From positions 1,589,501-1,653,500 of the forward strand of contig JAUPFP010000032.1 in the NCBI GenBank assembly GCA_036925085.1: a stretch of 64,000 nt of DNA, read 5' to 3'. A program made the translations under genes and the position numbers. Position 1 is the stretch's first letter. Each line of letters opens with the position of its first letter. The notes under the pieces were generated by a model. It did not search any database, was not told where the DNA came from, and saw only the letters and a list, made by a program, of their open reading frames with translations. The DNA is from Brachycybe producta. Lineage: Eukaryota > Arthropoda > Diplopoda > Playtdesmida > Andrognathidae. Below are positions 6,745-59,207 of this stretch, piece by piece.

Positions 6745-8490
6745 GGACGAATCCTAAATTTTCTCGAATCCGAATTCTAAATTTTCTCGAATCCGAATCG
6801 TACATTTTGTCGAGTCCGAATCGTACATTTTGTCGAGTCCGAATCGTACATTTTGTCGAGTCCGAATCGTACATTTTGTCGAGTCCGAATCGTACATTTT
6901 GTCGAGTCCGAATCGTACATTTTGTCGAGTCCGAATCGTACATTTTGTCGAGTCCGAATCGTACATTTTGTCGAGTCCGAATCCTACATTTTGTCGAGTC
7001 CGAATCCTACATTTTGTCGAGTCCGAATCGTACATTTTGTCGAGTCCGAATCGTACATTTTGTCGAGTCCGAATCGTACATTTTGTCGAGTCCGAATCCT
7101 ACATTTTGTCGAATCCGAATCCTAAATTTTGTCGAAACCGAATACTACATTTTGTCGAATCCGAATACTACATTTTGTCGAATCCGAATCCTAAATTTTC
7201 TGGAATTCTAAATTTTGTCGAATCCGAATCCTAAATTTTCTGGAATCGTAAATTTTCTGGAATCCTAAATTTTCTCGAATCCGAAATTTTCTGGAATCCT
7301 AAATTTTCTCGAATCCGAATCCTAAATTTTCTGGAATCCTAAATTTTCTCGAATCCGAATCCTAATTTTTCTGGAATCCTAAATTTTCTCGAATCCGAAT
7401 CCTAAATTTTCTCGAATCCGAATCCTAAATTTTCTCGAATCCGAATCCTAAATTTTCTCGAATCCGAATCCTAAATTTTCTCGAATCCGAATCCTAAATT
7501 TTCTCGAATCCGAATCCTAAATTTTCTGGAATCCTAAATTTTCTCGAATCCGAATCCTAAATTTTCTCGAATCCGAATCCTAAATTTTCTCGAATCCGAA
7601 TCCTAATTTTTCTGGAATCCTAAATTTTCTCGAATCCGAATCCTAAATTTTCTCGAATCCGAATCCTAAATTTTCTCGAATCCTAAATTTTCTCGAATCC
7701 GAATCCTAAATTTTCTCGAATCCGAATCCTAAATTTTCTCGAATCCTAAATTTTCTCGAATCCGAATCCTAAATTTTCTCGAATCCGAATCCTAAATTTT
7801 CTCGAATCCGAATCCTAAATTTTCTCGAATCCGAATCCTAATTTTTCTGGAATCCTAAATTTTCTCGAATCCGAATCCTAAATTTTCTCGAATCCGAATC
7901 CTAAATTTTCTCGAATCCTAAATTTTCTCGAATCCGAATCCTAAATTTTCTCGAATCCGAATCCTAAATTTTCTCGAATCCGAATCCTAAATTTTCTCGA
8001 ATCCGAATCCTAAATTTTCTCGAATCCGAATCCTAAATTTTCTCGAATCCGAATCCGAAATTTTCTCGAATCCGAATCCGAAATTTTCTCGAATCCGAAT
8101 CCGAAATTTTCTCGAATCCGAATCCGAAATTTTCTCGAATCCGAATCCTAAATTTTCTCGAATCCGAATCCTAAATTTTCTCGAATCCGAATCCTAATTT
8201 TTCTGGAATCCTAAATTTTCTCGAATCCGAATCCTAAATTTTCTCGAATCCGAATCCTAAATTTTCTCGAATCCGAATCCTAAATTTTCTCGAATCCGAA
8301 TCCTAAATTTTCTCGAATCCGAATCCTAATTTTTCTGGAATCCTAAATTTTCTCGAATCCGAATCCTAAATTTTCTCGAATCCGAATCCTAAATTTTCTC
8401 GAATCCGAATCCTAAATTTTCTCGAATCCTAAATTTTCTCGAATCCGAATCCTAAATTTTCTGGAATCCTAAATTTTCTCGAATCCGAAT
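6745..8490. repeat. 23-bp minisatellite array
   Basis: About 75 head-to-tail units. The first part (about 6800-7110) is a homogeneous variant with unit core CATTTTGTCGAGTCCGAATC. The rest is CTAAATTTTCTCGAATCCGA with frequent shortened units (TTTTCTGGAATCCTAAA). Long open frames across it are by-products of the period. The left border, about 30 bp starting AGAGGTTGGACGAATCC, is nearly the same as the border of the 30-bp array at 34018, so both arrays probably grew inside copies of one mobile sequence. It lies between the convergent IPO7 and UBE2M genes. Confidence 0.9.
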
Positions 8491-33600: not shown

Positions 33601-36600
33601 TTCAAACTGCTATAAATCGTTTATTTTTTAAGATATTGCCACGAAAAAACCTTTAGCATAATCGTTTACCCTTCCAGTTTTTAAAAACAATTTGAATTTT
33701 TTTCGTAATGTTTCTGAAAAACCGTTCGCTTGACGTTTTTGTGCCCAAATTTTACAGAAAACGTCTATGGAGCTTAGCACTATAGTGACTCCAGTGGTGC
33801 CGTAAAGGGGGGGGGATTGAATATCTATAAAGCCCCTCTTAAATGGTTTTTATTGTAGTAAATTACTATTGTTTGTTTGGTATTTAGTGGATAATGGATG
33901 CTTTGGTCTGTAACGGTCTCGGCATTTATCTCGGAATGAAGACGTTGCAATACTTTTCGATGAAACCATATCATTGGCGAAGTCTTTGGAAAATACCAAC
34001 TTACAGGTTAAATTAAAATTAGAGGTGGGACGAATCCTAAATTTTCTCGAGTTCGAATTCGAATCCTAAAAGGTTCTCGAGTTCGAATTCGAATCCTAAA
34101 AGGTTCTCGAGTTCGAATTCGAATCCTAAAAGGTTCTCGAGTTCGAATTCGAATCCTAAAAGGTTCTCGAGATCGAATTCGAATCCTAAAAGGTTCTCGA
34201 GATCGAATTCGAATCCTAAAAGGTTCTCGAGATCGAATTCGAATCCTAAAAGGTTCTCGAGTTCGAATTCGAATCCTAAAAGGTTCTCGAGATCGAATTC
34301 GAATCCTAAAAGGTTCTCGAGATCGAATTCGAATCCTAAAAGGTTCTCGAGTTCGAATTCGAATCCTAAAAGGTTCTCGAGTTCGAATTCGAATCCTAAA
34401 AGGTTCTCGAGTTCGAATTCGAATCCTAAAAGGTTCTCGAGTTCGAATTCGAATCCTAAAAGGTTCTCGAGTTCGAATTCGAATCCTAAAAGGTTCTCGA
34501 GTTCGAATTCGAATCCTAAAAGGTTCTCGAGATCGAATTCGAATCCTAAAAGGTTCTCGAGATCGAATTCGAATCCTAAAAGGTTCTCGAGATCGAATTC
34601 GAATCCTAAAAGGTTCTCGAGTTCGAATTCGAATCCTAAAAGGTTCTCGAGATCGAATTCGAATCCTAAAAGGTTCTCGAGTTCGAATTCGAATCCTAAA
34701 AGGTTCTCGAGTTCGAATTCGAATCCTAAAAGGTTCTCGAGTTCGAATTCGAATCCTAAAAGGTTCTCGAGTTCGAATTCGAATCCTAAAAGGTTCTCGA
34801 GATCGAATTCGAATCCTAAAAGGTTCTCGAGTTCGAATTCGAATCCTAAAAGGTTCTCGAGTTCGAATTCGAATCCTAAAAGGTTCTCGAGTTCGAATTC
34901 GAATCCTAAAAGGTTCTCGAGATCGAATTCGAATCCTAAAAGGTTCTCGAGATCGAATTCGAATCCTAAAAGGTTCTCGAGATCGAATTCGAATCCTAAA
35001 AGGTTCTCGAGATCGAATTCGAATCCTAAAAGGTTCTCGAGTTCGAATTCGAATCCTAAAAGGTTCTCGAGATCGAATTCGAATCCTAAAAGGTTCTCGA
35101 GTTCGAATTCGAATCCTAAAAGGTTCTCGAGTTCGAATTCGAATCCTAAAAGGTTCTCGAGTTCGAATTCGAATCCTAAAAGGTTCTCGAGTTCGAATTC
35201 GAATCCTAAAAGGTTCTCGAGTTCGAATTCGAATCCTAAAAGGTTCTCGAGTTCGAATTCGAGTCCTAAAAGGTTCTCGAGTTCGAATTCGAGTCCTAAA
35301 AGGTTCTCGAGTTCGAATTCGAGTCCTAAAACGTTCTCGAGTTCGAATTCGAATCCTAAAAGGTTCTCGAGTTCGAATTCGAATCCTAAAAGGTTCTCGA
35401 GTTCGAATTCGAATCCTAAAAGGTTCTCGAATCTCTGGAATCCTTCATGTAAGAATCCTATATTATTCATTAAGAAGATACAAATAAATGAAATAATATT
35501 AAATATTAAATTATTAATAATTAAAAAACAAGTGTGACACTCAGGGTCGCCACAAGGTGATATTGGTGATCCGGGTACAACACCGAAATTGCAACAATCG
35601 GACGTCGTTTCTATCTTTGTTAGTGAACGCTTCTATTGGACGTCAATGGAGTTAAGAGGCTACATCAGAAAACTACTTCAAAAAATCACCGCAAAGAGCG
35701 CTAGCATCGTTTTTATATTGAGCCCATAGATCCAATGTTAAAGAAAAAGTGTTAATTTTTAAAATACACACACACAGTCGCGGCAATATGTTTATTGTTC
35801 GTATTTAAAGTTGTCCAATTTTGATGGTTCAAAGTACAATGTGCACCTTAAATATATGCTGATCGAGTGATAGAATGACAAAAAATTGGTAAGTGCGGTT
35901 ATATTATTAAAACTATTCCAAAATCGCGAATTTTAAATTCTTCTGTTAAACTCCATTGAGTACGTGCTCAAAAGCAAAAAAATATCCATTAAAATGCTCG
36001 TAAAAATACCTAAAAATCACAGTGAAGCCAACATATTGGCGCATGTGCTGATTTTTTTCTGGTTTTTTAAAATTATTTTTAGGTATTTTTACGAGCATTT
36101 TAATGGATTTTTTTTTTGGCTACGAGCGCGTACTCAATGGAGTTTAACAGAAGAATTAAACATTCGCGATTTTGAAATAAGTTTTTAAAAATAGAACCGC
36201 ACTTACCAATTTTTTGTCATTCTATCACTCAATCAGCATAATATTTAAGGTGCACATTGCACTTTGAACCATCAAAATTAGACAACTTTAAATATGAAAA
36301 ATAAACATATTGCCGCCGCAACTGTGCATTTTAAAAATTAACATTTTTTCTTTAACATTAGGTCTATGGGCTCAATAGAAAAACGATGCTAGCGCTCTTT
36401 GTGGAGATTTTTCGAACTATAGTTTTGCGATGTAGCCTCTTAAAATTAATTTGACCAAAGTTTTAAGTTTTTTTTCAGGTTAGGATTCGAAAGATGAAAA
36501 AAACAGTTTTCAAATCACGAATATTTTTCAAGATTTCGCGGGATTCGAATGTCCCTTCCCTACTTTATATAATCAATCGGAGGTTTCATTTTAAAATTAT

Positions 36601-41935: not shown

Positions 41936-44900
41936 TTATGTTTTGTCATCTACATATGCTTCGTCTGCGAGAACCAACTGTAGAATCTGACCACAGTAGT
42001 GTTCCTTTGTGGGACCCAGAAGGGTTTTAATCAGTTCGATTTCGTCGGAGATGCTTGCATCTTCGTCGTCTTGCACATTCTGCATCTTGCGATAAGCTGC
42101 AACAAAAAAAAAATTAGAATGAACCAAACTACCAAACTCGTTGAATACGGAGCCCTATAAAGGGCATGCGAGATTTTTTTTTTTTTAAATCTCGACATTA
42201 ATCTCGAAATTTCCACTTTTTCCAGAACCTCGACATGTCGACTTTATTCTCGACATGCGGACTTTTAATCTCTTTTATTCGGCTATGTTAATGGCGCTAT
42301 GCTGCGCGCACCATACTCTAATAATTAAATTATTGCTGCTACAAGAGGGCGCTTGCAATAATTGAATTATTAGAGTATGGTGCGTGCAACGTGCCAACAT
42401 AGCCGAATAAAAGAGATTAAAAGTCGACATGTCGAGATTTAAAAAAAATCTTGCATGTCCTTTACAGGGCTCCGTACTTTGACGAGCCACTTTTTAAGTT
42501 TTACCCATCAATAACGTTTCGACACCGACATCTCGTTCCAATTCCTTCCTACGTTCTTCTAACTTGCAGTAGACGTCTTCGATCTTGTCTAGTTCGTGAA
42601 AACTCGCAATCGAAGACGTCGAACTCCAACTGTCTAGAGAATTACTTCGGCAATCTTCCGATTTTAAAATCTTCTCCATGGAGCTTTTCATCAGTTCTAC
42701 GTCATCTTCGTAGTTTATTTTACTTCCCGAATCGTCTTCATCGTCGAACGTAACCTCGGTCAGATTCGGCAGCGAATATGTTCTCATCCCGTTTAACATA
42801 CTGGAACTACGTCCCAATTTTGGGAACCGGAAACGAATTTCTTTGACCACTGACTTATAGAAATCAACTTTCGTATCGGTTTCGTACAACACTGAAGTTT
42901 TGCTCGACGTTGTTTCGAAAGTCTCGGCCGATTCGACTGGTGGACTCGAAACGGGAGGTTTATTTTCTTTAACAGTTGTTTCCATTTCTTCGTCGTGAGC
43001 CGCAACTAACATACAAAGCGTTAAGGTCCTAGCCATTTTAGATAAACTGTTATCTGCGCAGAAACCACTGTCCGGCGTTAAGGTTTTCTCGTCTGATAAG
43101 CTAGTATCATTGCATATTGAAGCAAGAAATTGTTCTGCTTCGTTGCAGTTTTGTTCGACCTCGTGGTGCGTTTCCGACTTGACGAGAATTGTCGTCGAAG
43201 TCGCCGATAACTCGGCCAACGGTTGCTCCTCGACTGTTTGTGGTTTATTCGCGAGATCGTTAGCAACAGTCGCATCCAATTCATTTTTTATTGAGGTGCT
43301 TTGTTGGTCGGTCTCAGGATATTCGATCGTGTCCTTCGTAGGAGTCATCTTAAATTCCTCGACGCCTTTCTGTTCGTAACGAATGACCTTGTCGTCAACT
43401 GTTGTTACGTCCATATTGGAAGCCGTCGATTCCAACGGCAAAAGTAGTAGGTTTTGGCATAGACTGTTTTCTTCCCATCGTGCCCGTGCAAATTGCTTGC
43501 GTGCCGTATCGTTGCTGACGAAAACCTCGGCGTTATTGCTCGGAGTGCTTTCGACTTCCGATGCCGGCAGCGCTACTTCATCTTTTTTTTCGGAAGACTC
43601 GCTGTTCAGATCGTAGCCGACTGGATTTAAAATCTCGCATTTGCAATCCTTTACTTTTACGTCGCAATTGTTCTCGGCGGAATTTTCCGTCGATTTCGAG
43701 GATTCTTTCTTCGCAATCAACGGGTTCTTCCGAATGTTGAAACGTTGTTGCGGCAACGTTGGAACCTTCTTCGAACGATGAGCTAATTGTAGTTTGCTTG
43801 CTCTTTGAGCGGTCAACGGTTGCAAGTAAGGCGATTTCAACCCGTTACGATTACAACCATGAAACGGAGTACCGTTGCTTTTGACCGACGGAGAATTACT
43901 GACGCAAGGCGACGGGACCCTGATTACGTTTCCCAAGGATCCCTTTCGCACGGATTTCGCCGATCTTCGATCGCCGCAACTCTTTTCGTCACTGTGTAAA
44001 GTTGTGTGACTGAATTCTTCATCGAATTGACCCGGACTCAAGAACCGACGTGCTCGTTTCAACAGGAACGGCTTGCGAAGAATCGCATTGACTGATGGTC
44101 TATCTCTCGGATTCCTTTTAAAAAGCTGAGAGACTAAGACTCGAAGATCGTAGCCGTATCGAGACGGAACCGGAGGATACGACCCTCGAACGATTTTCAA
44201 AATGAGAGATTTTACGTTTCCCGCTTCGAAAGCGTGTTTGAGGGTCGTCATCTCGTATAAAACACATCCCAACGACCAAATGTCACTTTTGTGGTTGTAC
44301 GGACGGTTTTCACAGATTTCCGGCGACAGATAGTACGGAGTTCCGATACAAGTTCGTGCTAACTCCAGAGTGGTGTCCAAAACTTTGGCGATGCCGAAGT
44401 CTCCCAGCTTGACGGTTCCATCGAGCGTTAAGAACACATTTTGAGATTTAATGTCTCGATGGAGAATCTTTCTATCGTGAATGTGTTTTAGAGCGAGACA
44501 AATCTGAACGAACCAATCGAGAATTGTGCTTTCGGAGAAGGGGATTCCTACAGAAATATATGAAAATAAAATAATATCGTTAGAGCTGGCAAAGGTTAGA
44601 ACCGAACAGTTTCTACTCGGTCGCGCGAATTTTGAGTTAACCGGTTCTGATCATTTCGTCGATCTTAACAAACGAGTTCCAAATGTTCAGATGCGCACAT
44701 CTGCTAATGCGTTTGAACCGGTTCGTAAGATCAACGAACTGATCAGAACCGGTTCCCAATTTGCATTAGCAGATTTTTCCAGCACATTAGTTAGAGGTGG
44801 TTAAAAGGGTAGAACCGTACCGATTCATCCCGGTTTGGAACCGGTTCTTATCAGTTCGACCTATACTGGCGAACCGGTTCTACCAGTTCCGAACCGTTGA

Positions 44901-46611
44901 CATCACTAGACATAATATGATATAGGCCTACACATGGGCGCGGACTCGATTTATGGGCCAATCAGGCATTTAGCCAAAAAGCCGCATAGTCTGAGGGCCG
45001 TAACTTTTCATTATAAGGCCGGGCCAACTTCATAATAAATACGGATCGGATATTTATGAAATATCAAGCGCATTTTTTCTCAATCTTTGGCTCACGAGCC
45101 AATTGTGAAGTAACAATTCCGTTTAGATCAACCAACCATTATTATGCGTTTATCTAAAATAGCACTTATTAGAGGCTAGAGCTTTCTCTATTTGACAAGT
45201 GACAGTAAGCAGGCATATAGCCTCTAACCGGCCTTTTTTTATTTGAAAAAGCATAATTTCAGTTGCTTTATAATGATGATTACAGAAAATCATGGAAATG
45301 ATCCAAATTAATGTAAAATTGCAGAAACTTATTTAACATGACCCAAATTAACAGGCTACATCGGTAAAAATGACTTCGAGAAATCTCCACAAAGAGCGCT
45401 AGCATCGTTTTTCTATTGAGCCCATAGACCCGATTGTTAAAGAAAAAACGTTAATTTTTAAAATACACAGCAGTCGCGGCGGCAATATGTTTATTTTTCA
45501 TATTTAAAGTTGTCCAATTTTGATGGTTCAAAGTGCAGTGTGCACCTTAAATATTATGCTGATCTAGTGATAGAATGACAAAAAAATTATGAAATGTTTT
45601 TCCATTTTAAAAAATATTTCAAAATCGCGAATTTTTAACTCTTATGAAAAAAGAAAAAAAATCTATTAAAAATACCTAAAAATAATTTTAAAAACCATTC
45701 AGCACGTGCGCCAATATGTTGTCTTCACTGTGGTTAACGTGTGATTTTTTAAAATTATTTTTACGTATTTTACGAGCATTTTAATGGATGTTTTTTTCTC
45801 TTATTTGGGCGTAGGCCTACTCAATGGAGTTTAACATACGAATTAGAAATTCGCGATTTTGAAATAAGTTTTTAAAAATAGAAAAAGACTTACCAATTTT
45901 TTGTCATTCTATCACTCGATCAGCATATATTTAAGGTGCACATTGCACTTTGAACCATCAAAATTGGACAAGTTTAAATATAAAAAAATAACATATTGCC
46001 GCCGCGACTGTTATGTATTTTAAAAATTAACGTTTTTTTCTTTAACATCCGGTCTATGGGCTCAATAGAAAAACGATGCTAGCGCTCTTTGTGGAGATTT
46101 CTCGAAGTAATTTTGCGATGTAGCCTCTTGAAGTCAAATCACAGTAATTTACCGAAACTCATTAACAAATTGTAAAAGGGGGTTCTTGCATTCTTTTGTT
46201 ATTTCCCCCCTTTCTAATCAGGCCCAACTTGTCAACCCGTCTGACGTCACAAGCTTCCTCTTACCACGGCAAGGCTATACCTACCTATGTGGGGTTGCAA
46301 ATTTACCTATTGCAATGTTTACCTTTCTGTGCATTAATACGAGTGTAAAGATCTCCAGCATCACAATAGTCCATAACAATGCAAAGGTTGTCACGGAAGT
46401 CGAACGACTCTCTATAAGCGACTATATTAGGATGACCCATTCGAGACAAAAGGTCCACTTCCAAAAGGGCCTCGCTTCTTTCTTTAGTTGTCAATCGACC
46501 CATGTTTATCTCTTTGATCACATATTTACATCCTGTTTGTCGGCAACGAGCTAAGAATGCAGTTCCGAAACTACCACCACCAATCTTTGCTTCTTTACAG
46601 TATTTTTCCAT
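41936..46611 (-). CDS. NEK1: NEK1-type NIMA-related protein kinase, complete
   Basis: A serine/threonine kinase of the NEK family; NEK1 acts at centrosomes and primary cilia and in the DNA damage response. Three exons (minus strand): 46611-46323, 44547-42505 and 42096-41936. The junctions read AAAG then GAATCC, and ATGG then CTTATC, in phase, to give 830 codons. The kinase domain covers about residues 4-260, with glycine loop GGGSFG (11-16), Lys33 in [14 protein letters not shown] with Asp128, DFG at 146-148, and [15 protein letters not shown] with Thr162, the activation-loop threonine of human NEK1. [14 protein letters not shown] and [11 protein letters not shown] follow. The middle is polar and low in recognisable domains. 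The C-terminus (LLMAYRKMQ to [11 protein letters not shown]) matches the conserved tail of NEK1. The protein is shorter than human NEK1 (1258), and the long basic coiled coil is not seen. Confidence 0.93.
42146..42476. mobile_element. TACGGAGCCCT inverted-repeat element in NEK1 intron 2
   Basis: TACGGAGCCCTATAAAGGGC at the left and CAGGGCTCCGTA at the right, with matching ATGTCGAC and GCGCACCATACTCTAATAAT arms and a central AAGAGGGCG. About 330 bp filling most of the intron. Confidence 0.75.
44584..44905. repeat. AACCGGTT-rich inverted repeat in NEK1 intron 1
   Basis: AACCGGTTCTGATCA and TGATCAGAACCGGTT lie inverted around a central AGATGCGCACATCT hairpin. GAACCGGTT recurs at least six times. 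Confidence 0.65.
45352..46127. mobile_element. 800-bp palindromic MITE, copy 6
   Basis: Left TTAA (45348-45351) then CAGGCTACATC; right GCCTC then TTGA. NEK1 intron 1. One internal deletion in the left arm. Confidence 0.8.
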
Positions 46612-46623
46612 AGTTTACATCAA

Positions 46624-47240
46624 GTTTAATACACAGTAATAACAGACTATACTGTGCAGTAACCATGGCAACAACAGTATTCTTCCTTCCCCGTTACTCC
46701 ATCAAGATGTAATGTATATCAAAGGGGACGACTAAGAAGAAAATCCTGTACGAGATTCACTGCTGAATGCTTATTATTTTTTGGTAAACAGTTTCACTTT
46801 TTATTAGCGTTTTACTAGACATCCTAATCAGGTTTACTACACAGTAATAACAGGCTATACTGTGCGGTGACCATGGCAACAACAGTATCGCCCTCCCCTC
46901 AATCACGATGTAATATGTAATGTATATTGTATAGCCAGAAGAAAATATAGATACGAGATTCAGTAAGATTCACAGCAGAGTGTGTATTATGGCCGTTTCA
47001 CTGTTTATTAGCGTTTTACTACACATTCTACTCAGGTTTACTCCACAGTAATAAGTTACTATAACAGACTATACTGTGCAGTAACCATGGTGACAATAGT
47101 ATTCTCCCCCCCTTCTACCCCCACCAACCCCCACCTCCAGCTTGATTTGACGTATATCAAGGGGACGACAAAGAAGAAAATCATATTCGAGATTCACCAT
47201 ATTTCACCAAGATTTACTAAGATTCACTGAAATTCATTGA
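46624..47240. promoter_or_regulatory. Triplicated 208-bp upstream unit with X-box-like sites
   Basis: A unit of about 208 bp lies in three tandem copies directly upstream of the NEK1-type start codon. Each holds ACAGTAATAACAGACTATAC followed by a 14-bp quasi-palindrome: GTAACCATGGCAAC (46659-46672), GTGACCATGGCAAC (46867-46880) and GTAACCATGGTGAC (47081-47094). These fit the RFX X-box consensus (GTNRCC, AT, RGYAAC), the third with changes. X-boxes drive many ciliary genes and usually lie close to the start codon; the first is 48 bp from it. Regulatory function is inferred. Confidence 0.6.
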
Positions 47241-47616
47241 GAATCAGCGAGATTTATTAATTCGCTAGATTCTCTAGAGATTCACTGGCACTAGAGATTC
47301 ACTGATTCACTTTTATTTTCACATCACTGACAGAAGTGCTTACGAGATTCATCTTTTAATGTCTTCTCCCTTGGCCTTACTGTACGAGATTCACAAAAAA
47401 GGGGAACGACAAAAGGAGGCGGATTTCGTATGGTAACACGAGCAGTTTTTCTTTTTACGCGTGTTTTATTGGATACACAGAATTTGGATTCTTCAATGAA
47501 ATATATAATAAAACGGGGATAAAAAGTCAAACGGCTTGACATACATGTGGTGAATTTTATTTGAAACTTAGTGAATCTTATTCATGATTGTGTTTCTATG
47601 TCGTCCCCCTTGTATC
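47158..47616. mobile_element. GGGGACGACA inverted-repeat element
   Basis: AAGGGGACGACAAAGAAGAA on the left pairs with TATGTCGTCCCCCTT on the right. Inside are a run of GAGATTCACT units and CAGTAAAACGCGG-related segments (ACGCGTGTTTTATTGG, AAAACGGGGATAAA). Related to 51147-51271 and 51755-51965. Confidence 0.55.
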
Positions 47617-48164
47617 GAAAGCATTGGAGAGAATATAGGAGGCCTTTAACAATTGGAATATCAAATACTGTATAGTATTTGCTATAAATGGTGGCGTCCA
47701 TAAAAGTGAGCGGGTATTATGAGAAAACGGGTGTTTAGTTTGTGATTTTATTTGATGTTATTTCTGTAGTAGTTCAATTTGAAACAACTGAAAATATGTA
47801 TAAAACTGGTACGTTGATTTTGATTATTTTATTGACGTTTGTCGATTTTTATTTTAAAGAAACTGAAACAAAAACATTGTAGGAAGTGGTGGGGTGATAA
47901 TGTTGAGCTCATAATCGAGATTCAAAATGCAAAGTAGGGTGTGTCTTTCACCCTATATCTGCCTCGTCGTAAGAAGAAGCTTGTGACGTCAGAGGGGTTG
48001 ACGAAAAATTTAGAATTGTTTCATTTAGTCTGATATAAAAGGGATGATATCAACAATTTAAACAAAGGTGTTCCTGTATAATTTTATTATCCCCTCCTTT
48101 TTTAAGGTGGCTCAATAGATATTTTTTAACCCCCCACCCCCTCTCCAGACGGCGCCACTGCAGT
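47617..48164. other. Unassigned sequence
   Basis: No gene seen. One GAAGCTTGTGACGTCAGAGG repeat end lies near 47980. Confidence 0.4.
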
Positions 48165-48950: not shown

Positions 48951-49298
48951 TGTGCGCATGTGTACGCACATGTACACACTTGTGCGCATGTGTACGCACA
49001 TGTACACACGTGTGCGCATGTGTACGCACATGTACACACGTGTGCGCATGTGTACGCACATGTACACACGTGTGCGCATGTGTACGCACATGTACACACG
49101 TGTGCGCATGTGTACGCACATGTACACACGTGTGCGCATGTGTACGCACATGTACACACGTGTGCGCATGTGTACGCACATGTACACACGTGTGCGCATG
49201 TGTACGCACATGTACACACGTGTGCGCATGTGTACGCACATGTACACACGTGTGCGCATGTGTACGCACATGTACACACGTGTGCGCATATGTATATA
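48951..49298. repeat. 30-bp satellite of alternating pyrimidine-purine
   Basis: About 11 units of TGTGCGCATGTGTACGCACA plus TGTACACACG, almost without variation. Every step alternates pyrimidine and purine from 48981 to 49298; the only break is a CTTG at 48979-48982. The sequence lacks stops in most frames, which explains the many open frames, but no protein is likely. Flanked by ACCTCCATTGCT at 48897 and 49921. Confidence 0.92.
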
Positions 49299-54487: not shown

Positions 54488-57400
54488 TTATTGTGGTGAG
54501 GAGGTAGGTTCCTCTTGTTGTGGGGAGCTGGATTTGTCTTCCCCCTCCAACCCTTGAACAACTGTCCTCAGTTGTTTTGGCTTGATATGCACAATGTTCA
54601 CCGTGTCTCGAATCAATCTTCCAAACGTATCTTCGTGCTCCAGCTCGAGCACCGTGTCGCTGATGATTTTGGTTACCGTGTAACCATCCCTGTACGAGTA
54701 ACGTAGTTTCTTGGTCTCATCAGGCACGATGCGTTGGTCTCGAACGAGTACTGGGTCTCCGATTTTATACGTGTGTGGAGTTTTTCGTCTTGCGTCATAG
54801 TACTTCTTCTGTCGCAAATGGGCCTCGTGCAGGTTGGCCCTTGCGATTTCGACCTCTTCCGTGGCAACCACAGAAGGTGCTGCAGGGTTTGAATCCATAA
54901 CCTTCGGTAGGAGAGGTGCCCGATTGTCGATTCGTAGTCGGGCCTCTCTTCCAAACATTAAGCGGTATGGCGAGAACTTCGTTGACGTATGGGTCGCGGT
55001 GTTGTAAGCGAAGGTGGCGGCTTGGAGATGGAAATACCAATCCCGCTGTCCTTTTTCAGGCGTCAGGAGTCTCTTGACGGTCTGCATTATAGTTTTGTTG
55101 GTCCTTTCCGCAAGACCGTCTCCTTGCGGAAAGTACGCTGTCGTGGTGGCGTGCTTTATTCCCAGCTCGTCACACAGCGCTTGTGTGTCTTTAGCTGTAA
55201 AAGGTGTTCCCCGGTCGGTGATTATCCTCCTGGGCATCCCGATAAGATACACGATCGTATCTTGGAGGAAATTCTTAGTTGTTTTGGCCGACTGGCTGTG
55301 CACAGCTCGTGCGAAACAGAATCTGGTGGCGTAATCCACTGCCAGGATGATGTGCTTGACACCACCCAGTGATTTTGGCAGGGGACCGATGTAATCGATT
55401 CCCCAGCATTCACCTGGGTCTCCAATTTCCATTTCATGGAGGAACCCGGGCAGCTTGGACTGTGGTGTCTTGCACTTTTGGCATATCTCGCACGTGCGCA
55501 CATACTCGATGGTATCCTGCTTCCAGGTTGGCCAAAAGAACCGTTGGCACACCTTTTCTAATGTCTTATCCTGGCCGAAGTGTCCGGCTTCAGGACTATC
55601 GTGTAAAAGTCTCAGAACTTCGGGTACCAGATGTTTGGGTACCACCGTCACGAGCTTGGGTGTTATGCTGCCCTGGTAGACAAGGGCACACAAAACCTCG
55701 TCTATGATGACATAGGTATGGTGAAGCTCGGTACTTGGATTGTTGCGAAGTTCGGTCTTAATCTGTGTCACGTTCGGGTCTCTTGTTTGTTCAACCGACC
55801 AATCCCAACGCAAAGTGACTGCGTAAACCACGCTGTCGTCGAGGTCATCTGGGGTAGCCTGCAGCTTCCAGTCTTCAGGAACGTCCACCGGACTCCGTGA
55901 AATGCAATCTGCATCGACGTGAGTGATGCCGGCCTTGTAGACTACGGTGTAGTCGTATTCCTGGAGCAGTAGCTGCCAGCGACCCAGGCGTCCTTGGAGT
56001 CGCTGTGCGGTTTTTAAGTAGCACAGTGCATGATGGTCGGTGACGATGACAAAGGCTTTGTTAAAGAGATAAGGTCTAAACTTGACGATGCCGTACACCA
56101 CTGCGAGGCACTCTTTATCTGTTGTTGAATAGTTTAATTCGGCGTCTCGGAGCACTCGAGAGACACCACCCAGGATCTGCAGTTCCTTAGATGGTGACTG
56201 TTGGTAGAGGATAGCTCCGATGCCGTAAGCAGAGGCGTCGGCGTGCATTTTGATTTCGGCATCTGGGTCGTAAATGGCCAATATTGGCGCGGTGACAAGT
56301 TTAGTCTTTAACAGAGTGAATGCTGCTTCTCTGTCGATCGTCCATAAAAAGGGCAGCCCCTTTTTGGTCATATCCGTGAGTGGTTTAGCGATGTGGGCAA
56401 AGTTAACAATAAATCGCCGGTAGAAACCGGCCATGCCCAGGAATCGCTTCACCTCCTTGACATTAGTAGGCGCCGCTAAGTCGGAGATGGCAACCACTTT
56501 CCTCGGGTCTGGACGCACTCCTTCTTTGGAGATGATGTGTCCCAGGTAGAGGACTTCGTCGTAGCCGAAGAAGCTCTTTTCGGGGTGAAGCTTCAACCCC
56601 GCCTCTTTTAGGAGTCCTAGGACGCAGTCCAACCTTTCCATAAACTGTTCAAAAGTCGCGCCGAATACGATGATGTCGTCTAGGTAGACTAGACAAGTCT
56701 CCCATTTGTGGCCAGCCAAAAGGATATCCAGGGCACGCTGCATAGTAGCAGGAGCGTTACGCAGACCAAAGGGCATCCGATTGAATTCGAACAGCCCACC
56801 GGGTGTGATGAACGCGGTCTTCTCCCTATCCTCTTTGGCGACCTCAAATTGCCAATAGCCGGAGATCATGTCGAGGGTCGCGAAGATTCTCGACCCACGA
56901 AGCGAGTCTAAAGCATCATCGATTCGGGGTAGTGGGTAATTGTCTGGTTTGGTGATATCGTTCAGGCGTCTATAGTCAACGCAGAAACGCCATTGTCCAT
57001 CCTTCTTCTTCACCAGGACTACTGCTGAAGCATAAGGAGACTTGGATTCGCTGGCTACTCCGGATTTGAGCATTTCCTCAACTGTCTTCCGGATAATCTC
57101 CCGCTGCTCGGGGCCACTCCTTCGGAGGGGTTCCCGCACGGGTGCATGATCGCCAGTATCGATTCGGTGTTCCGTGAGGTTGGTACACCCAAGTTCCGAC
57201 GTTTCTAGCGCGAAGACATCTCGATAGGATCTCAAAAGATCCATTAGAATGCGCCTCTGGCCATTACGTAATCGAGGCCCGAGTTGCATTGCTTCATCGA
57301 ATTTAGCGCCTGACTCTTTTGTCATGATCGGGTCAGCGTTTGAAGTGGTCTTTACTTCAACCGTTTCGAAACAGTAGTCTTTTTGTACGTGGGCTATCAC

Positions 57401-58783
57401 TTCGCCGGAGGCCAGGGTCAATGGCCCCGTAGTAGTGTTCAGGACCTCGACTAGGAAGCTGTTGCTGTTACGGCCTTGCATAATGCCGGGGGCCACCCAG
57501 ACCCCCCTCGAGGCGCGTAGCTTCTCGTCAGGAGAGACCACGAAAAGATCCTGATCTGTGAGGATCCCAGAGGCCTCCACCTCCACTAGTGTTGTCCCAT
57601 GGCCAGTGAGCTGTGTTAGCCCTTTGACTACTAGGTATTCGTTCGGTTGCTGCATAAGCTTGACTTCAATGGGAGCGGTGTCCGACTCCCCAAGAGTGGC
57701 TGGCGTGATTTCTTCCAGGGCACTCTTGACGTACGCCTGAATACTCTGCCTTCGGAGTGCTGATTCAAAAAGGTCGTCTTCTAAGTAGACTTTATTGGTC
57801 TGCATAGACACAAGGAGCTTCAGTGCCCTACCCAGGTCTCGGCCTAAGATGGCGTCGGGTGGGCCAGTGATAACCAGCAGGCGGCCCGTGGCAGATTGTT
57901 TGGCAATTTCCACAGTAGCGGAGACTTGCCCTGCCACGGCGATGGTGTTTCCTCCAACTCCCTCAATCCTTGGCGGATGGGCCATAGGCTTGATGTTGAG
58001 TTGGAGCTGCTTTGCAAGTGCCTTGGATATTACACTACCATGAGCTCCGGTGTCTACGAGCATGCGGACCTCTTTGCCATTGATAGTGACAGTGATTTTC
58101 GGACTGTCATCACTGACACTATGATCTCCTATCTCTTGGGGCATGCAAGTATTCTTCAGTTGTCTATATAGGTCTTTCAGCATCCGGCGGCAGCAGGGGC
58201 GCCCTTGGAGTGACGTCCCACCACCTGGGGCCAAGATGGCGACCACCTCATTGGCGGTGCAACCCAAGGCGGCGGTGGCGAGGTTAATGACCTCAAGGGT
58301 ACCATGCCAGGTAGTTAGGTCATCCATTCCCCAGGTTAATTCCGGGATGTAGTCGACCATCATTATTGGCATGCCGGCCGGTGCTCTGTCATAATTGGTT
58401 GTCTCAGGAGGCATATCCGGTACCATGACCACACTACGGTGGTCCGTATCGGAGGCCTCCCTTGTGAAATCGTAGATCGGGTGCGCGTACTGATGTTCTG
58501 TACGCTCATAGTTTGTATAGCGCGGTACATAGTACGCGCGCTCTTCAGGTGTCGTATATGGACCTGGTACATGTCGTCTGTAGTATGAATCGTAGCCGGA
58601 CTCGTACGGCTCTCGGTGCCCGACAGCGTACGGCGGAGAGTTGTCTGATTCGCTACGATATTGGCGATATTGTGGTGTTGTAGTACATGTAGTCGGTAGT
58701 GGTGGCGCAGGCGGCGGTTGGGTGCCATTATGAATAATCATCATGTGAGTGATCTGTATTTTTAGTTCATTAAGTTGATGCAT
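54488..58783 (-). CDS. pol: Gypsy polyprotein: protease, RT, RNase H, integrase
   Basis: A 1431-residue frame without interruption. Residues 1-220 are Tyr/Pro/Arg-rich and of unknown role, with an LTWGMDDLTTWHGTLE block at 149-164. The aspartic protease has DTGAHGSV (DTG at 244-246) and AILGRDLG at 311-318. The reverse transcriptase covers about 540-760, with the catalytic Asp638 (IFATLDM) and YLDD at 700-703. RNase H is about 845-965 with HADAS, TDKE and TDHHAL. The integrase has an HHCC finger (H1061, H1068, C1098, C1101) and the DDE residues D1130 (WGIDY), D1190 (ITDRG) and E1226 (GLAERTN). It carries out reverse transcription and insertion. The lack of decay suggests a young copy. No gag nucleocapsid knuckle precedes the protease. 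Confidence 0.95.
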   Translation of the reverse strand: MHQLNELKIQITHMMIIHNGTQPPPAPPLPTTCTTTPQYRQYRSESDNSPPYAVGHREPYESGYDSYYRRHVPGPYTTPEERAYYVPRYTNYERTEHQYAHPIYDFTREASDTDHRSVVMVPDMPPETTNYDRAPAGMPIMMVDYIPELTWGMDDLTTWHGTLEVINLATAALGCTANEVVAILAPGGGTSLQGRPCCRRMLKDLYRQLKNTCMPQEIGDHSVSDDSPKITVTINGKEVRMLVDTGAHGSVISKALAKQLQLNIKPMAHPPRIEGVGGNTIAVAGQVSATVEIAKQSATGRLLVITGPPDAILGRDLGRALKLLVSMQTNKVYLEDDLFESALRRQSIQAYVKSALEEITPATLGESDTAPIEVKLMQQPNEYLVVKGLTQLTGHGTTLVEVEASGILTDQDLFVVSPDEKLRASRGVWVAPGIMQGRNSNSFLVEVLNTTTGPLTLASGEVIAHVQKDYCFETVEVKTTSNADPIMTKESGAKFDEAMQLGPRLRNGQRRILMDLLRSYRDVFALETSELGCTNLTEHRIDTGDHAPVREPLRRSGPEQREIIRKTVEEMLKSGVASESKSPYASAVVLVKKKDGQWRFCVDYRRLNDITKPDNYPLPRIDDALDSLRGSRIFATLDMISGYWQFEVAKEDREKTAFITPGGLFEFNRMPFGLRNAPATMQRALDILLAGHKWETCLVYLDDIIVFGATFEQFMERLDCVLGLLKEAGLKLHPEKSFFGYDEVLYLGHIISKEGVRPDPRKVVAISDLAAPTNVKEVKRFLGMAGFYRRFIVNFAHIAKPLTDMTKKGLPFLWTIDREAAFTLLKTKLVTAPILAIYDPDAEIKMHADASAYGIGAILYQQSPSKELQILGGVSRVLRDAELNYSTTDKECLAVVYGIVKFRPYLFNKAFVIVTDHHALCYLKTAQRLQGRLGRWQLLLQEYDYTVVYKAGITHVDADCISRSPVDVPEDWKLQATPDDLDDSVVYAVTLRWDWSVEQTRDPNVTQIKTELRNNPSTELHHTYVIIDEVLCALVYQGSITPKLVTVVPKHLVPEVLRLLHDSPEAGHFGQDKTLEKVCQRFFWPTWKQDTIEYVRTCEICQKCKTPQSKLPGFLHEMEIGDPGECWGIDYIGPLPKSLGGVKHIILAVDYATRFCFARAVHSQSAKTTKNFLQDTIVYLIGMPRRIITDRGTPFTAKDTQALCDELGIKHATTTAYFPQGDGLAERTNKTIMQTVKRLLTPEKGQRDWYFHLQAATFAYNTATHTSTKFSPYRLMFGREARLRIDNRAPLLPKVMDSNPAAPSVVATEEVEIARANLHEAHLRQKKYYDARRKTPHTYKIGDPVLVRDQRIVPDETKKLRYSYRDGYTVTKIISDTVLELEHEDTFGRLIRDTVNIVHIKPKQLRTVVQGLEGEDKSSSPQQEEPTSSPQ

Positions 58784-58805
58784 GATGGTGTTGAGTTTAC
58801 AGCCA

Positions 58806-59207
58806 TCACACGACTGTGGGAAGTGGATCTGGTAGTAGCGGAGGTCGCTCCTGTTGATATCTGGAGTAACATGTGGACGACATTAGGCGTCGAAATGTAC
58901 TATTGTTTGTGGGCCGAGCCGTGCGCCGTGTAGACTGTTGATGCACATCATTACTTTGGGTGCCGCCACTTCGTGGCACCCACCAGGTCCCAGGTTGAAT
59001 AACTGGATCTATGGTGGGTCCGAGTGGGACAGCCACACGTGATGATGCGGCGTATTGTGTATCGTATGTCTGTGATGTTGCATAGGCCCTCCATAATGCT
59101 GATGGATATATGCTTCCCCTGGAGTGCGGAAGAGCTCTCCGGGCGGTCCCAGTTAGTCGTGGGTGAGCATCCATTATGTTAAGGCTTGTGTAACACGTAG
59201 TGATCAA
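58806..59207 (-). CDS. 133-residue ORF upstream of pol, unrecognised
   Basis: Ends 22 bp before the pol start. Proline-, arginine- and serine-rich (GTWWVPRSGG, QQERPPLLPDPLP). It might be a gag remnant or leader ORF; no motif supports either. Confidence 0.3.
   Translation of the reverse strand: MITTCYTSLNIMDAHPRLTGTARRALPHSRGSIYPSALWRAYATSQTYDTQYAASSRVAVPLGPTIDPVIQPGTWWVPRSGGTQSNDVHQQSTRRTARPTNNSTFRRLMSSTCYSRYQQERPPLLPDPLPTVV

What the first reader, a model, noticed from the sequence alone, without database searches (positions are those of the whole stretch)
46624..47240. Triplicated X-box-like sites directly upstream of a ciliary-family kinase
The sites GTAACCATGGCAAC, GTGACCATGGCAAC and GTAACCATGGTGAC lie in three tandem copies of a 208-bp unit, 48, 256 and 470 bp before the start codon of the NEK1-type gene. 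Established knowledge: RFX factors bind X-boxes of this form and control ciliary genes, and NEK1 acts at cilia. A tandem duplication would have multiplied an RFX site. I did not see this motif elsewhere in the window.
Basis: partly seen in the sequence, partly recalled or inferred. Interest (0 to 1): 0.75.

Follow-up and report, generated by a model that had tools for sequence, protein, structure and literature searches.

The report
Triplicated RFX-type sites before NEK1 kinase
Just upstream of a NEK1-type kinase gene in an unnamed animal-like genome, a switch sequence of the kind recognised by cilia-controlling RFX proteins has been copied to three sites by a local DNA duplication; the switch is a known kind, and the closest copy looks like the one that matters most.

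Summary
Three 14-bp X-box-like palindromes lie 48, 256 and 470 bp before the ATG of a three-exon, 830-aa NEK1-type kinase gene on the minus strand; no other match with at most one mismatch is in the window. The proximal 14-mer occurs at 72 places in the 295-Mb genome against 2 for its reversed control. The genome encodes an RFX1-type DNA-binding domain. Of six upstream regions of other ciliary genes that I fetched, three hold a strong X-box (three of the four with a readable first exon). Each unit joins about 100 bp of promoter to the end of a mobile element; only that end was found elsewhere in the genome. The X-box lies in the best-conserved 43-bp block of the units.

Against the bold reading: the middle and distal 14-mers are rare (6 vs 0 control, 4 vs 1). 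No binding, start-site or related-species data were available. Some X-box sites lie near genes not known as ciliary. Most likely the proximal site works and the outer copies are weaker helpers or relics. This is a new member of a known kind.

The parts
46659..46672 (.). proximal X-box-like site GTAACCATGGCAAC, 48 bp before the ATG
   Evidence: 72 genome places vs 2 control; matrix score 19.1
46867..46880 (.). middle site GTGACCATGGCAAC, 256 bp before the ATG
   Evidence: 6 genome places vs 0 control; matrix score 19.0
47081..47094 (.). distal site GTAACCATGGTGAC, 470 bp before the ATG
   Evidence: 4 genome places vs 1 control; matrix score 17.2
46619..46826 (.). unit 1 (proximal): X-box region plus end of a mobile element
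46827..47033 (.). unit 2 (middle)
47034..47250 (.). unit 3 (distal); its outer part runs into the mobile element at about 47150-47620
46639..46681 (.). 43-bp conserved block around the proximal site (also 46847-46889 and 47061-47103): 36 of 43 columns invariant in the three units
   Evidence: sequences
47150..47620 (.). mobile element with inverted terminal repeats (ends not mapped to the base); its left end is what recurs in units 1 and 2 and elsewhere in the genome
   Evidence: (inverted pair 47154-47175/47594-47615, 82% complementary)
46323..46611 (-). NEK1-type gene, exon 1 with ATG at 46611
42505..44547 (-). NEK1-type gene, exon 2
41936..42096 (-). NEK1-type gene, exon 3 with stop codon

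Best explanation
This is the promoter region of a NEK1-type gene with a working proximal RFX X-box 48 bp before the start codon. A mobile element landed just upstream, and the stretch holding the X-box plus the end of that element was then duplicated twice in tandem. An RFX1-type factor is proposed to bind the proximal site and switch the gene on in ciliated cells; the two outer copies are weaker auxiliary sites or relics. Shown: the sites, the gene model, the repeated units, motif enrichment and an RFX gene. Inferred: RFX binding, a transcription start between the site and the ATG, expression in ciliated cells, and the order of events.
For: Motif over-represented 72 vs 2, and 736 vs 18 strand counts for the broader pattern; flanks of 22 copies from 20 loci and the window share at most 40 bp between different loci. 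RFX1-type DNA-binding domain matching human RFX1 1dp7 at E 2.6e-32. Other ciliary genes: a B9D2-like gene with a site 119 bp before its ATG and two tektin genes with sites 269 and 651 bp before. NEK1 type. The X-box block is the most conserved window of the three units: 36 of 43 columns invariant against 55 of 201 elsewhere. Pattern absent from 9 of 9 fetched copies of the dispersed part. Overexpressed Nek1 inhibits ciliogenesis in a mouse cell line (PMC2442590, abstract), so dose control is plausible.
Against: No expression, start-site or binding data. The B9D1-like gene has no site in 416 bp, and two further ciliary regions without a located first exon have none. Exact sites also lie near a PRIM2-like gene and a weakly PHD-like frame; only 3 of 20 fetched exact sites have a plausible gene start nearby by eye. 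A Drosophila study found that an X-box before an ATG alone does not predict RFX control (PMC2375033, passages). By my reading none of the three sites fits that paper's loosest consensus RYYNYY N1-3 RRNRAC; the first two fit its strict RTNRCC N1-3 RGYAAC, the third does not.
Confidence: 0.52

Rival explanations
1. All three sites work together as a selected array: the duplications were kept because more RFX sites raise or steady NEK1 output.
For: Three sites scoring 17 or more in 436 bp where 119,023 unselected bases have none; the block round each site is conserved while the rest of the units has indels. X-box clusters recur in the genome: three sites within 172 bp at L033, where the second and third lie in a local repeat 98 bp apart (0 of 300 shuffles as good), and two each at L029, L056 and L057. 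C. elegans ciliary genes often have one or more X-boxes (PMC2873420, passages).
Against: The outer 14-mers are variants hardly over-represented genome-wide (6 vs 0, 4 vs 1). At L029, L056 and L057 flank similarity is absent or borderline (146, 5 and 72 of 300 shuffles as good), so most other clusters do not show duplication. No relatives to compare.
Confidence: 0.2
2. The sites are RFX sites but serve a non-ciliary RFX programme (another RFX family member) or a general promoter role.
For: PF02257 has nine matches on six contigs, so several RFX genes are likely, and some exact motif sites lie 231-280 bp before genes not known as ciliary.
Against: Three of four other ciliary genes with a readable first exon carry a strong site; two other NEK-like kinases with a readable start do not (L052, L053).
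Confidence: 0.13
3. The array is a neutral duplication of a promoter fragment and the motif has no present role here.
For: The neighbourhood is dense in repeats and mobile elements; the units differ by many indels.
Against: The proximal motif is 36 times its reversed control genome-wide, and the X-box block is the best 43-column window of the alignment.
Confidence: 0.11
4. The conserved thing is an upstream start codon: each CCATGG gives an ATG on the gene strand that opens a short peptide MVTAQYSLL in all three units, and in unit 1 it overlaps the true start out of frame, so it would repress translation.
For: The first nine residues read the same in all three units, and the three differences of unit 2 from unit 1 there are synonymous third-position changes.
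Against: Three changes is very few. The whole 14-bp palindrome is enriched genome-wide; the tektin site GTTGCTAGGCAAC has no ATG. With a start site between the X-box and the ATG the codon is never transcribed.
Confidence: 0.04

Closest known systems
RFX X-box promoters of metazoan ciliary genes (DAF-19, dRFX, RFX2/3 targets)
   Same: Inverted-repeat site within a few hundred bp of the start codon of a cilium-related gene; RFX1-type factor encoded; other ciliary genes of the genome carry such sites.
   Different: Three copies in tandem units; one half-site is GTAACC where the third base departs from the published RYYNYY half; binding not shown.
NEK1 kinases
   Same: Kinase domain closest among solved structures to human NEK1 (4apc, E 5.6e-131); most names in the 120 rows listed are NEK1, at 52-75% identity in the best local alignment.
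   Different: Modelled at 830 aa in three exons, while the 120 listed relatives are 785-1,450 aa. The three best rows by E-value are named Nek5 (two) and ribosomal S6 kinase-like (one), so NEK1 against NEK5 is not settled by a tree.
Homotypic binding-site clusters arising by local duplication
   Same: Several like sites in one promoter within copies of one segment.
   Different: The duplicated segment also carries the end of a mobile element; whether all sites act is unknown. Named from recall; a paper search with RFX, X-box and homotypic cluster gave none.

Membership tests
RFX X-box | two half-sites in inverted repeat, 1-3 bp apart | tested here: met
   all three sites
RFX X-box | fit to a published consensus (PMC2375033, passages) | tested here: inconclusive
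   by my reading sites 1 and 2 fit RTNRCC N1-3 RGYAAC, site 3 does not; none fits RYYNYY N1-3 RRNRAC of the same paper
RFX X-box | genome encodes an RFX DNA-binding domain | tested here: met
   9 PF02257 matches on six contigs; RFX1 1dp7 match, E 2.6e-32
RFX X-box | motif over-represented in this genome | tested here: met
   met for the proximal 14-mer, 72 vs 2; slight for the middle, 6 vs 0, and the distal, 4 vs 1
RFX X-box | found before other ciliary genes of the same genome | tested here: met
   3 of 6 upstream regions fetched, 3 of 4 with a readable first exon
RFX X-box | close to the transcription start | tested here: inconclusive
   48 bp from the ATG; start site unknown
RFX X-box | bound by RFX and needed for expression | not testable with these tools
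   no experiment
RFX X-box | conserved in related species | not testable with these tools
   The genome search says that this genome has no relatives here
NEK1 kinase | N-terminal NEK1-type kinase domain | tested here: met
   NEK5 not excluded by a tree
NEK1 kinase | long C-terminal tail ending in the NEK1-type terminal segment | tested here: inconclusive
   555-aa tail in the gene model; resemblance of its end to NEK1 is from recall
mobile element with terminal inverted repeats (MITE-like) | inverted repeats at both ends and dispersed copies | tested here: met
mobile element with terminal inverted repeats (MITE-like) | target-site duplication | not tested
   ends not mapped to the base

The most novel reading that the evidence does not exclude
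In this genome RFX control is repeatedly strengthened by local tandem duplication of X-box segments: at NEK1 a mobile-element end was carried along and three sites now set the dose of a kinase whose excess blocks cilia, and a second X-box cluster (L033) shows the same kind of local duplication.
Probability: 0.15. Interest if true: 0.55.

Novelty: new member of a known kind. Interest (0 to 1): 0.36.

Why it matters
If true, it is a natural promoter series in which the number of RFX sites before one ciliary kinase changed by duplication, giving a clean way to ask how site number sets gene dose. It also suggests that the RFX X-box code can be read from an unannotated genome: motif count, RFX gene and X-boxes at B9D2-like and tektin genes agree. 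For a specialist, an X-box before a NEK1-type gene is expected rather than surprising.

Tried and rejected
Rejected: that the X-box belongs to a dispersed repeat (9 of 9 fetched copies of the dispersed part, L010-L018, lack the pattern; one search scored 40 of 94 candidates, so its list is a lower bound; the looser matrix does find weaker sites in two of these loci, L012:148 at 16.6 and L014:703 and 1447 at 14.9). Rejected: that the 14-mer spread inside one repeated flank (22 flanks; alignments between different loci are at most 40 bp).

Tried and left: naming the organism. The NEK1 search and a search with part of the Ty3/gypsy-like pol frame of the window gave no close named relative in the rows listed. 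Tried and weak: gene content round 20 loci with exact sites was judged only by a codon score and by eye; 3 of 20 have a plausible gene start 231-280 bp away.

Matrix: the weights are my own, from recall. The threshold 15.5 for the ciliary test was set after the B9D2-like site (15.7) was seen. Expected number of such sites and chance of three or more: 0.019 and 1e-6 in the four regions with a readable first exon by the unselected background; 0.033 and 6e-6 in all six regions; 0.16 and 6e-4 in all six by the higher rate seen in the flanks of the 20 motif-chosen loci, 8 in 193,996 bases. The NEK-like search gave nine other places; I fetched four upstream regions: two with a readable start have no site (L052, L053), L054 lies in coding sequence and has none, L055 has one of 12.2 in its coding part. 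IFT20 (PF14931), PACRG (PF10274) and IFT57 (PF10498) could not be tested because the machine did not answer.

Full report
What is there. The window is a 64-kb piece (G000:C32:1589501-1653500) of an unnamed 295.3-Mb eukaryote genome. Three 14-bp near-palindromes sit at 46659, 46867 and 47081, spaced 208 and 214 bp. They lie before a gene on the minus strand whose ATG is at 46611. I joined three exons with ordinary splice sites (46611-46323, 44547-42505, 42096-41936) into an open frame of 830 codons. Its kinase domain matches solved human NEK1 (4apc) at E 5.6e-131, far ahead of NEK7 at 1.7e-59 or weaker. The database search lists 120 of 7,831 proteins, mostly named NEK1, at 52-75% identity in the best local alignment; the first three rows are named Nek5, ribosomal S6 kinase-like and Nek5, and only the 7,985 candidates sharing most words were scored. 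The Pfam kinase model covers the domain. I call it NEK1-type; NEK5 was not excluded by a tree.

More than chance. GTAACCATGGCAAC, the proximal site, occurs 72 times in the genome and its reversed control twice. The broader pattern GTNRCCATGGYRAC gives 368 forward and 368 reverse against 11 and 7. By base composition about one copy of such a 14-mer is expected. The flanks of 22 copies from 20 fetched loci and the window share at most 40 bp between different loci, so the excess is not the spread of one mobile element. The 20 loci come from the head of the list of 72 places; the rest could not be fetched. The middle and distal sites are different: their exact 14-mers occur 6 times (control 0) and 4 times (control 1), so genome use marks the proximal one as the preferred form and the others as rare variants.

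The repeat unit. The three units align with many indels. A 43-column block around the X-box is the best-conserved window, 36 of 43 columns invariant with no gaps, against 55 of 201 in the rest. Only the outer half of each unit, not the X-box half, was found elsewhere: 43 other places match query stretches within 105-217, 326-417 and 533-625 (40 of 94 candidates scored, and the search skips very common words, so absence is not proof). Nine of nine such loci fetched hold no X-box by pattern. Those stretches are the left end of an element with terminal inverted repeats that stands at about 47150-47620. The simplest history, inferred, is that the element inserted upstream of the promoter and that promoter plus element end were then duplicated twice.

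Does RFX control of ciliary genes exist in this genome? PF02257 matches nine places on six contigs; one domain aligns to human RFX1 in 1dp7 over 61 residues at E 2.6e-32. I looked upstream of other ciliary genes found by the B9 and tektin models. Six upstream regions were fetched. In four a first exon could be read by eye: a B9D2-like gene with GTTGTCATAGCAAC 119 bp before its ATG, a tektin with GTTACCATGACAAC 269 bp before, a tektin with GTTGCTAGGCAAC 651 bp before, and a B9D1-like gene with no site in 416 bp. The other two regions (a third B9 gene, perhaps MKS1, and a third tektin; first exon not located) have none. The B9D2, B9D1 and MKS1 names and the tektin first exons rest on recall and on the family matches downstream; the first-exon frame of one tektin (L058) matched no Pfam family. 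Two other NEK-like kinases with a readable start have no site (L052, L053). In 119,023 bases chosen for other reasons one site reaches 15.5 and none 17; in the flanks of the 20 motif-chosen loci 8 reach 15.5 in 193,996 bases. By these two rates three sites in all six regions have a chance of 6e-6 or 6e-4, with a threshold set after the first site was seen.

Limits. Motif alone does not prove ciliary control. In Drosophila, negative control genes had X-boxes before the ATG at the same frequency until conservation was added (PMC2375033, passages read). Here exact sites also lie 280 bp before a PRIM2-like gene (PF04104, E 1.7e-28), 237 bp before a frame with a weak PHD-finger match below Pfam's cut-off, and 231 bp before an unnamed 118-aa frame. 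For human RFX targets a study gives -500 to +500 bp of the start site as its robust window for X-boxes (PMC5838959, passages), which fits, but the start site is not mapped here. C. elegans ciliary genes often carry one or more putative X-boxes 100-250 bp upstream (PMC2873420, passages), so several sites in one promoter is known.

Is it in print? Paper searches with X-box, RFX and NEK1 (3 papers, of which I read passages of one, PMC11317154), with tandem duplication (1, listing only), homotypic cluster (none), NIMA-related kinase and daf-19 (1, listing only), NEK1 with RFX3 (12, of which 10 listed) and general terms on duplicated sites (3, listing only) showed me no report of a duplicated X-box before NEK1; the library holds only open-licence papers and supplements were not read.

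Other clusters. X-box clusters occur elsewhere: three within 172 bp at L033, in what looks like an intron of an NDR-type kinase gene (name from recall; kinase domain by Pfam), where the second and third lie in a local repeat (0 of 300 shuffles as good) while the first does not share it (111 and 28 of 300); two each at L056 (borderline, 5 of 300), L057 and L029 (no flank similarity, 72 and 146 of 300).

Verdict. It is a good new example of a known kind.

Noticed in passing
G000 genome-wide: GTAACCATGGCAAC is 36 times commoner than its reversed control, yet only 3 of 20 fetched loci have an obvious gene start nearby by eye; what the other copies do is open.
   Followed up: partly
L033:4975-5146: Three X-box sites in 172 bp, apparently inside an intron of an NDR-type kinase gene, the last two in a local repeat 98 bp apart.
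   Followed up: partly
window 46650-46682 and the same places in units 2 and 3: The X-box is flanked by short inverted arms ATACTGT / ACAGTAT, kept in units 1 and 2 and with one change in unit 3 (sequences).
   Followed up: no
window 46595-46666 (minus): The CCATGG of each site opens a short frame beginning MVTAQYSLL on the gene strand; in unit 1 it overlaps the true start codon out of frame.
   Followed up: partly
window 46231-46268 and 47965-48002: A 38-nt inverted pair (92% complementary) brackets exon 1 and the array; the stretch holding the first arm has 40 other matches in the genome (40 of 46 candidates scored).
   Followed up: partly
window 54488-58882 (minus): Uninterrupted 1,464-codon Ty3/gypsy-like pol frame; the 120 rows listed show 36-59% identity, many of them pseudoscorpion (Cordylochernes) proteins.
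   Followed up: partly
window 6748-8490 and 34031-35430: Two long tandem arrays with related units (CGAATCCTAAA...), 80 and 47 copies; the second is open in several frames over 478-531 codons.
   Followed up: no
window 48951-49294: Tandem array of a 30-bp unit, 11.5 copies at 99% matches (TGTGCGCATGTGTACGCACATGTACACACG), rich in alternating purine-pyrimidine.
   Followed up: no
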